The position numbers and the translations under genes were made by a program. The notes beneath the pieces were generated by a model. The model worked only from the letters and a program-made list of their open reading frames with translations. It did no database searches and was not told where the DNA came from. 64,000 nt of DNA from the NCBI GenBank assembly GCA_024636975.1, contig JAGXGA010000027.1, forward strand, positions 124,001 through 188,000, written 5' to 3'. Below, in pieces: positions 7,356-44,853 of this stretch (position 1 is its first letter; the number at the start of each line of letters is the position of its first letter). The DNA comes from Mariniphaga sp. (GTDB lineage: Bacteria; Bacteroidota; Bacteroidia; Bacteroidales; Prolixibacteraceae).

Positions 7356-7482
7356 ACCTTCGCCTGAGCAAATTCAGCCTTAACTCAATGATAACTCAAT
7401 GTAAATTCAATTATAATTGAATTTACATTGAGTTATCATTGAGTTAATATTGAGTTTACATTGAGTTTAGTCCGGAGAAGGT
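7356..7482. repeat. Palindromic element of nine 11-bp units with inverted flanks (copy 1)
   Basis: Positions 7370-7468 consist of nine contiguous 11-bp units. The first four carry the core AACTCAAT or a variant, the last five its reverse complement ATTGAGTT. The switch at 7413/7414 creates a perfect inverted repeat covering 7380-7447 (34-bp arms, no spacer). Outside the array, ACCTTCGCCTGA (7356-7367) and GTCCGGAGAAGGT (7470-7482) are imperfect inverted repeats of each other. A second copy lies at 44711-44853. No coding capacity is seen. It sits in the 570-bp gap between the beta-helix remnant and the convergent cysK. The rest of that gap shows nothing recognisable apart from the cysK terminator. 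Confidence 0.85.
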
Positions 7483-44710: not shown

Positions 44711-44853
44711 ACCTTACCTACTCCTTACCAAATTCAATATTAACTCAGTTTTAATTCAGCTATAACTCAATGTAAATTCAATTATAATTGAGTTTACATT
44801 GAGTTAATATTGAATTTATATTGAGTTTACATTGAGTTAAGTCAGGCGAAGGT
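44711..44853. repeat. Palindromic element of ten 11-bp units with inverted flanks (copy 2)
   Basis: Positions 44730-44839 are ten contiguous 11-bp units, five with AACTCAAT-type cores and five with the reverse complement, switching at 44784/44785. The central palindrome is near perfect (one mismatch within 22 bp of each arm). The right flank TCAGGCGAAGGT (44842-44853) is the exact reverse complement of the left flank of copy 1 (7356-7367); the left flank ACCTTACC (44711-44718) is a weaker match. It lies in the 393-bp gap between two leftward genes. Nothing else is recognisable in that gap. Confidence 0.85.

What the first reader, a model, noticed from the sequence alone, without database searches (positions are those of the whole stretch)
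7356..7482. Orientation-flipping array of 11-bp units forming a 68-bp perfect palindrome, present twice in the window
Nine 11-bp units (about one helical turn each) run as AACTCAAT-type cores and then switch to the reverse complement at the centre, giving perfect 34-bp arms with no spacer. Copy 2 at 44711-44853 has ten units and shares flank ACCTTCGCCTGA exactly, but at its opposite end, so the copies are inverted relative to each other with inverted-repeat-like ends. Units varying inside a fixed 11-bp register suggest selection for helical phasing (a protein lining one DNA face) or a small mobile palindromic element. Neither copy has coding capacity.
Basis: seen in the sequence. Interest (0 to 1): 0.75.

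Follow-up and report, generated by a model that had tools for sequence, protein, structure and literature searches.

The report
Evenly spaced chromosomal palindromic repeat arrays
The two palindromes are members of a set of at least about 110 short DNA arrays, built from repeats one helix turn long, that are spread at remarkably even distances along this bacterium's chromosome and look like docking sites for a DNA-organising protein.

Summary
Both window copies belong to a genome-wide set: 67 places of one unit type and 45 more matched by a related model (lower bound). The complete form is 138 bp: two inverted 69-nt arms, each five 11-bp units plus a 14-nt tail. None of 63 elements examined overlaps a called gene, and there is no gene-orientation bias. 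Copies are old (identity mean 81%, maximum 91%), yet length changes are nearly all whole 11-bp units. Base pairing is not conserved beyond sequence, and no target duplication was found. This favours sequence-specific protein binding in a helical register over an RNA hairpin or decaying mobile debris.

The main surprise is spacing. Of 71 within-contig intervals none is below 18 kb (about 27 expected; one weak partial hit left out would give 13 kb); median 35 kb. A genome of another genus carries arrays with different units, same 11-bp inverted plan, also evenly spaced (median 17 kb) across unit types. A third genus has such arrays; same-genus relatives sampled do not.

Best reading: a lineage-specific lattice of protein-binding arrays organising the chromosome. 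A few DUF6266 genes adjoin arrays. Nothing was tested experimentally.

The parts
7356..7482 (+). Array copy 1 (127 bp): inverted arms of 4 and 5 units of 11 bp, with 14-nt GC-containing tails
7380..7447 (.). 68-bp perfect palindrome inside copy 1, centre 7413/7414
   Evidence: 100% reverse-strand self match
7356..7369 (.). Left tail of copy 1 (ACCTTCGCCTGAGC)
7469..7482 (.). Right tail of copy 1 (AGTCCGGAGAAGGT)
44716..44853 (+). Array copy 2 (138 bp): 5 + 5 units of 11 bp plus tails; centre 44784/44785
44716..44729 (.). Left tail of copy 2
44840..44853 (.). Right tail of copy 2 (AGTCAGGCGAAGGT)

Best explanation
The elements are intergenic protein-binding arrays. Each 11-bp unit (about one helical turn; core YTGARTT followed by a variable linker) is one contact, so an oligomeric protein lines the DNA from both arms towards the symmetric centre. 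SHOWN: the unit register, the inverted arms, the location between called genes without gene-orientation preference, the rarity of length changes other than whole units, and the even spacing along the contigs. INFERRED: that a protein binds; that the arrays act on chromosome architecture (loop anchors, domain boundaries, condensation or segregation sites, in the way matS sites serve MatP) rather than on single genes; that the unit sequence and its protein change together between lineages while architecture and spacing persist. DUF6266 (PF19781), whose genes start next to arrays in three of the four full-length cases held, is a first, weak candidate for the protein or for a gene controlled by it.
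For: Register: 103 of 126 arms have exactly 5 in-register units, 14 have 4, 1 has 6; TGA and TT of the unit are 97-99% conserved, linker positions vary. The 46 elements scored with at least five units per arm align over 138 columns with no gap. Of the 67 spans of the main type, two (132 and 137 bp) are not 138 minus a multiple of 11 (read from the table). Age: pairwise identity mean 0.807, maximum 0.906 over 1035 pairs. Not RNA pairing: 83.6% of cells pair against 84.3% in shuffles, covariation score not above shuffles. Location: 0 of 63 overlap a called gene; 15 convergent, 15 divergent, 31 tandem, 2 undetermined. Spacing, own genome: 112 places, 71 intervals, minimum 18.4 kb, median 35.0 kb, CV 0.415; for the 70 intervals on 21 contigs of known length, 10,000 uniform placements never went below CV 0.619 or below 14 intervals under 18 kb (observed 0.418 and 0). 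Similar against real long intergenic gaps in mostly contiguous DNA (13 elements, CV 0.31 vs 0.77, P 0.0008). Genome G061, another genus: arrays of at least six unit types (typed by eye); 38 arrays, CV 0.48 vs 0.84, P 0.0002; same-type neighbours no further apart than label shuffles (P 0.21), so spacing does not depend on unit sequence. Third genus: G013, 5 palindromic arrays at lag 11 in 180 kb, none at lags 8-10 or 12-15, one at lag 7. Precedent for 11-bp arrays on one DNA face: CarH operators (PMC9304148, passages).
Against: No binding protein is identified. Array positions are mostly not shared between G000 and G061. Same-genus genomes G001-G003 gave no match to the unit pattern or the model and no palindromic lag-11 array in 200 kb sampled, so the function cannot be essential. 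16 of 71 intervals are 50 kb or longer, and both censuses stopped at 150 scored candidates. One weak partial match (C38:21008-21061, E 0.016) was left out and would give a 13.4-kb interval. For G061 contig C76 alone the CV is not significant against real intergenic gaps (P 0.11; the minimum spacing is, P 0.007). Of 45 places of the second type only 14 were read. The simple run detector is not clean in G013 (11 runs at lag 9, 11 at lag 11, 7 at lag 12). Three of four DUF6266 genes beside arrays is a small number, and its model shows an Ig/FnIII-like domain, no known DNA-binding fold.
Confidence: 0.5

Rival explanations
1. A non-autonomous mobile element (MITE-like) whose arms are transposase-binding arrays; spacing arises from target immunity of the Mu/Tn7/Tn3 kind, which keeps new insertions away from existing copies.
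For: Dispersed, lineage-specific family with palindromic ends. Mu cis-immunity is strongest near 5 kb and decays between 5 and 25 kb (PMC7350765, passages), about the range seen here. In G061 unit types recur in several copies.
Against: No target duplication above shuffles for 2-9 bp in 46 elements. No pair over 91% identical among those 46. Seven Y1-transposase matches in the genome, none with a run of array units in its fetched flanks (up to 1.5 kb) apart from one isolated two-unit pair about 1.4 kb from the match in L133. Exclusion acts across arrays with unrelated unit sequences in G061. Mu/Tn7-type PF09299 was not found, but that search had no positive control and shows nothing.
Confidence: 0.27
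2. Operators of a large regulon: arrays are binding sites of a transcription factor controlling neighbouring genes, as CarH does with tandem 11-bp repeats.
For: 11-bp direct repeats are CarH-type operators; three DUF6266 genes start beside arrays.
Against: 15 of 61 placed elements sit between convergent genes, and distances to gene starts are not shorter than to gene ends (median 258.5 vs 220.5 bp). Regulon membership does not predict even spacing.
Confidence: 0.08
3. Transcribed long hairpin (RNA-level) element of the ERIC/REP kind, acting on mRNA stability or termination; 11 bp is also the pitch of double-stranded RNA (recalled).
For: The arms of the two window copies are 73-91% complementary, depending on the stretch; the stem pairs far better than slid versions (83.6% vs 25-42%), as any palindrome would; the inner 22 bp of the two arms match more than shuffled arms.
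Against: No covariation above shuffles over the whole stem; linker pairs are mostly unpaired (columns 26/113 35 of 46, 37/102 36 of 46). Units 3-4 of the two arms are less alike within than between elements. No gene-orientation bias. No Rfam match in the window at gathering scores.
Confidence: 0.05
4. Intrinsic DNA curvature or supercoil pinning: the shared feature is bending produced by any 11-bp periodic sequence, not a protein.
For: Explains why unit sequences can differ; wedge-model bend is high for the own second type, G061 alpha and beta (98, 103, 66 degrees vs 41, 43, 32 shuffled).
Against: The main type has less predicted bend than its shuffles (24 vs 43) and G061 gamma is near shuffled (42 vs 37) (wedge values recalled).
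Confidence: 0.06

Closest known systems
MatP/matS of E. coli
   Same: Short dispersed sites at tens-of-kilobases spacing (23 matS over the 800-kb Ter; PMC3330122, listing and passages) that organise a chromosome domain
   Different: matS is a single 13-bp site confined to Ter; here arrays of about ten 11-bp sites occur on 41 of 67 contigs (counted from the lists), and other genera have other units
CarH/CarA operators (MerR family)
   Same: Tandem 11-bp direct repeats bound on one DNA face (PMC9304148, passages)
   Different: Three to five repeats at promoters; no inverted second arm of this kind and no genome-wide even spacing in the passages seen
Plasmid parC iterons bound by ParR (recalled)
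   Same: Two groups of about five roughly 11-bp iterons in plasmid R1 (recalled, not checked)
   Different: One locus per plasmid, iterons around a promoter, parM-parR operon (recalled)
REP/BIME, REPIN, ERIC, RUP (interspersed palindromic repeats)
   Same: Dispersed, intergenic, palindromic, lineage-specific
   Different: REPs are 20-40 bp with GTAG or CGTC tags (PMC3733652, abstract start and passages); no fixed 11-bp unit register or mutual exclusion known to me
SegB sites of Sulfolobales
   Same: A protein binding many sites across a chromosome and looping DNA (PMC12284271, abstract)
   Different: Mostly intragenic sites, mainly near segAB; archaea; no phased arrays mentioned in the abstract

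Membership tests
REP/BIME with RAYT | 20-40 bp palindrome with GTAG or CGTC tag | tested here: not met
   138-bp element with ACCTTC/GAAGGT-type ends
REP/BIME with RAYT | Y1 transposase gene flanked by the repeat | tested here: not met
   7 PF01797 matches; no run of array units in their flanks (up to 1.5 kb) apart from one isolated two-unit pair
MITE / transposon-derived element | target-site duplication | tested here: not met
   46 elements, k = 2-9, not above shuffles
MITE / transposon-derived element | autonomous partner with the same ends | tested here: inconclusive
Structured RNA family (Rfam) | match to a known family | tested here: not met
   0 matches in the window at gathering scores
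Structured RNA | compensatory base changes | tested here: not met
   whole-stem measures not above shuffles; excess matching in the inner 22 bp only
matS-like chromosome-organising sites | sites spaced regularly over a chromosome region | tested here: met
matS-like chromosome-organising sites | bound by MatP or another organiser protein | not testable with these tools
   needs pull-down or ChIP
CarH operator | unit nnnnTnnACAn at a promoter | tested here: inconclusive
   TTTACA occurs in some linkers of the main type but not in the second type's consensus, by reading; 15 of 61 arrays lie between convergent genes

The most novel reading that the evidence does not exclude
Some Bacteroidota chromosomes carry a previously undescribed ruler: evenly spaced (about 17-35 kb), helically phased, inverted arrays of protein sites that divide the whole chromosome into domains. 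Unit sequences are replaced between and within genomes, but the 11-bp register, the inverted plan and the spacing are kept, which implies a shared machinery (possibly with DUF6266 proteins) that measures or enforces distance along DNA.
Probability: 0.4. Interest if true: 0.95.

Novelty: categorically new. Interest (0 to 1): 0.85.

Why it matters
How bacterial chromosomes are divided into domains, and whether dedicated boundary sites exist, is an old open question. A set of short, recognisable, evenly spaced arrays with countable binding units would make it testable: one can map, delete, move or add sites and read out chromosome conformation. If the spacing instead comes from transposition immunity, this would be an unusually clean natural record of that process acting across unrelated repeat families.

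Tried and rejected
RNA hairpin: rejected as the main selected feature. Intrinsic curvature as the common property: rejected for the main type. Target duplications: none above shuffles. REP/RAYT link: none. Gene-orientation or terminator role: no bias. Empty-site comparison in the same genus: the gene beside copy 2 is 72-77% identical in G001-G003; in G001 the matching intergenic region has different DNA and no array, and in G002 and G003 only the hydrolase side aligned, so no base-level empty site could be read. Remnants of older arrays beside present ones: the lag-11 signal in the flanks is not above other lags. DUF6266 elsewhere: one of the two proteins against plasmids, the other against phages, the four-protein alignment against viral contigs, no relative found. 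Three-unit pattern: 0 in viral contigs; 4 stretches in 84,980 genomes, by reading plain 11-bp tandem repeats without an inverted partner; the tool may leave out the own genome.

Rows dropped and results against: 17 of 63 elements were left out of the 46-element alignment because an arm was scored with fewer than five units; the alignment is therefore of the elements that already passed a register test. C38:21008-21061 was left out of the spacing count. The run at G061 C76 174.8 kb was left out and included. G061 arrays counted were those with an inverted arm; single-arm or short runs (for example L241 near 16,993 and L229) were not. Control lags 7 and 14 are not clean in G061 (24 and 16 detections against 43 at lag 11). 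The run detector gave one short, barely palindromic lag-11 run each in L194 (G060) and L207 (G002). Not every model hit in relatives is an array: L158, L180, L181 and L184 show no lag-11 run. Selection of G061 and G013 arrays used lag 11 itself, so their lag profile is partly circular. Thresholds of the run detector were 0.66 (0.60 for a few loci there), and 0.63.

Full report
OBSERVATION. The window holds two inverted arrays of 11-bp units, at 7356-7482 and 44716-44853. Copy 1 contains a 68-bp perfect palindrome, 7380-7447. A lag-11 run scan of the 64 kb finds only these two places; the control lags 8, 9, 10, 12, 13 and 15 find none and lag 14 one run; a second, palindrome-aware detector finds the same two at lag 11 and one place each at lags 7 and 12. 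The ten window proteins scanned include a sulfatase, a TonB-dependent receptor and a 3-keto-disaccharide hydrolase, which fits a saccharolytic member of Bacteroidota (inference; the organism's name was not given).

A LARGE FAMILY. The window lies in a 5.76-Mb draft genome of 67 contigs. A DNA search found many further copies. The pattern of two adjacent units occurs 203 times against 4 for the reversed control, and the strong tail pattern, with up to three mismatches, 65 times against 1. I read 63 elements at first and four more of the main type later (L165-L168). The full form is 138 bp: from the centre outwards each arm is five 11-bp units (TAATTGAATTT, ACATTGAGTTA and so on) and a 14-nt tail of the type AGTCMGGMGAAGGT. 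Of 126 arms, 103 have exactly five units in register, 14 four and one six; of the other eight, two have three units and six fail my unit score through substitutions. The 46 elements scored with at least five units in each arm align over 138 columns without a gap. The two arms differ statistically: a strong and a weak arm can be told apart.

CONSTRAINT. Pairwise identity of the 46 is 0.81 on average and 0.906 at most over 1035 pairs, so there are no very recent copies among them. At that age I would expect many small insertions and deletions (inference), but of the 67 main-type spans only two, 132 and 137 bp, differ from 138 by something other than a multiple of 11. Within the unit, TGA and TT are 97-99% conserved, two positions alternate T/C and G/A, and linker positions vary. 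Base pairing between the arms is not conserved beyond what the columns give: 83.6% of cells pair against 84.3% in shuffles, though far more than in slid structures (25-42%), and the linker columns 26/113 and 37/102 are unpaired in 35 and 36 of 46. In units 3-4 the two arms of one element are less alike than arms of different elements, while the inner 22 bp are more alike. This points to sequence recognition in double-stranded DNA rather than an RNA stem, and perhaps to avoidance of a perfect long palindrome (inference). No target duplication is seen.

CONTEXT. With my own simple gene caller, 0 of 63 elements overlap a gene; 15 lie between convergent, 15 between divergent and 31 between tandem genes, 2 undetermined. 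Among 22 tandem cases with an oriented element the strong arm points downstream in 10 and upstream in 12. Window copy 1 lies between a sulfatase gene and a PLP-dependent enzyme gene, copy 2 between a redoxin gene and the start of a 3-keto-disaccharide hydrolase gene. In G061, 0 of 37 arrays overlap a called gene: 16 tandem, 11 divergent, 4 convergent, 6 undetermined.

DISTRIBUTION AMONG RELATIVES. The DNA query matches only the own genome among 60 genomes searched, own included. The two-unit pattern is in 4 of 140 family genomes, own included, with one or two hits in the other three and none in the three same-genus genomes. A covariance model (R1) matched 7 of 140 family genomes and 6 of 393 order genomes, own included in both. 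Reading these loci showed, in most but not all, arrays with other units on the same plan: G061 has CGAATTTGTTA units followed by TGAAAGAGGTA units; G062 has TACCCGTAATG-type inner and TATTGAGTTGG-type outer units; G063, G065, G105 and G387 have TCATTCAATGG units. L158, L180, L181 and L184 show no such run. Stretches of G061 showed at least six unit types by eye. G013, a third genus, has AACCAAAGGGT and ACAAACCATGG arrays. Same-genus G001-G003 (200 kb sampled) and G060 (120 kb) showed no palindromic array at lag 11, and G029, G031, G067 and G074 none in 27-80 kb each; the simpler run detector gave one short run in L194 and one in L207.

EVEN SPACING. The own genome also has a second, related type (CGAATTTAA units). 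The union is 67 places of the main type and 45 others matched by model R2, of which 14 were read; both searches scored only 150 candidates, so 112 is a lower bound. The 71 intervals within contigs have minimum 18.4 kb, quartiles 29.9, 35.0 and 46.9 kb and CV 0.415; 16 are 50 kb or longer. For the 70 intervals on 21 contigs of known length (CV 0.418), uniform placement gave CV 0.90 on average and never below 0.619 in 10,000 runs, with on average 26.8 intervals under 18 kb (never fewer than 14) against 0 observed. The two types space against each other as against themselves (36 mixed neighbours: minimum 21.7 kb, median 35.1 kb). One weak partial match, C38:21008-21061 at E 0.016, was left out; with it one interval would be 13.4 kb. 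In G061 five contigs (four end to end, C76 to within 2.5 kb of its end; 714 kb) hold 37 arrays with minimum spacing 7.7 kb, median 17.3 kb and CV 0.46 against 0.91 expected (0 of 10,000). Same-type arrays are no further apart than with shuffled labels (P 0.21), so exclusion does not follow the unit sequence. Against placement restricted to real intergenic gaps the result holds: G061 with the one doubtful run included, 38 arrays, CV 0.48 vs 0.84, P 0.0002; own genome, 13 elements in mostly contiguous DNA (about 26 kb of C38 and 4 kb of C48 between stretches not read), CV 0.31 vs 0.77, P 0.0008. For contig C76 alone the CV is not significant (P 0.11) though the minimum spacing is (P 0.007). Array positions are mostly not shared between G000 and G061: of 252 flank proteins 27 had a good hit in the G061 DNA held, and 5 rows (four elements) lay within 1 kb of an array. 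In three of the four the array is on the other side of the gene; in the fourth (L030, 50% identity) it is on the same side and may be a shared position.

MECHANISM. An oligomeric protein contacting each 11-bp unit on one face of the helix would explain the register, the tolerance of whole-unit changes, the conserved core and the dyad. CarH is a documented protein that binds tandem 11-bp repeats on one DNA face (PMC9304148, passages). Even spacing without gene bias suggests an architectural role; MatP with its 23 matS sites over 800 kb is the nearest known function (PMC3330122, passages). The rival is a mobile element with target immunity; Mu immunity decays over 5-25 kb (PMC7350765, passages), a similar range, but exclusion across unrelated unit types, absence of target duplications and the strict register argue against it. 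Intrinsic curvature is not shared by all families.

A CANDIDATE PROTEIN. Two DUF6266 (PF19781) genes in the own-genome DNA held (834 kb, overlapping loci counted twice) start 70 and 100 bp from array centres and run away from them (L120, L257). In G061 (817 kb) one of two full-length DUF6266 genes starts 130 bp from an array centre (L234); the other lies near a contig start with no array seen in the 378 bp before it (L213), and one further weak partial hit has no full reading frame (L241). None were found in 180 kb of G013 or in 582 kb of nine other genomes, among which one array was seen. Much of the own-genome DNA held lies beside arrays, which favours such finds. The predicted structure (pLDDT 68.9, four sequences) has an N-terminal beta-hairpin with helices and a C-terminal Ig/FnIII-like domain, with no PDB match below E 0.001. 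DNA binding is not shown.

NOVELTY. Seven full-text searches aimed at such repeats in an open-access library showed no description of evenly spaced 11-bp-phased palindromic arrays in what was listed (20 of 41 papers, 15 of 38); subscription papers are not covered. I rate the lattice as a kind not described before, with the function unproven.

CAVEATS. Draft contigs; several arrays lie close to contig ends (C39:165, C26:1802, C38:2780, C33:3034, C37:17359, C21:150847), so assembly breaks may hide some; gene calls are my own; model E-values are rough; lag-11 arrays in G061 and G013 were found by a lag-11 criterion, with other lags as control.

Noticed in passing
L120:2332-2958 and L257:6286-6912 (own genome), L234:3111-3758 and L213:379-1020 (G061): DUF6266 genes; three of four start 70-130 bp from an array centre and are transcribed away from it.
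   Followed up: partly
L156, L157, L159, L177, L183: Inverted arrays with the same 11-bp unit TCATTCAATGG occur in genomes of different genera and families, which suggests horizontal spread of that unit type.
   Followed up: no
L137 5300-5345, L138 3780-3815, L139 5750-5795, L140 5325-5355: Plain 11-bp tandem repeats without an inverted partner in other Bacteroidota; possible raw material for arrays.
   Followed up: no
L125 3129-3195 and 3334-3414; L097 2761-2805: Other 11-bp-phased stretches with unrelated units lie 100-450 bp beside main-type arrays; pooled flank autocorrelation gives no general signal.
   Followed up: partly
L135 and L136 (own genome C5:131415, C14:62107): Partial Y1_Tnp matches inside open frames of 1246 and 1251 aa, unusually long for this domain.
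   Followed up: no
L278 15440-15567 (G013): Nearly perfect run of about eight TTTGTCCATGG units, more uniform than most other arrays seen, as if freshly expanded.
   Followed up: no
own genome contig ends, for example C39:165, C37:17359, C21:150847: Several arrays sit close to contig ends, perhaps because long palindromes break assembly.
   Followed up: no
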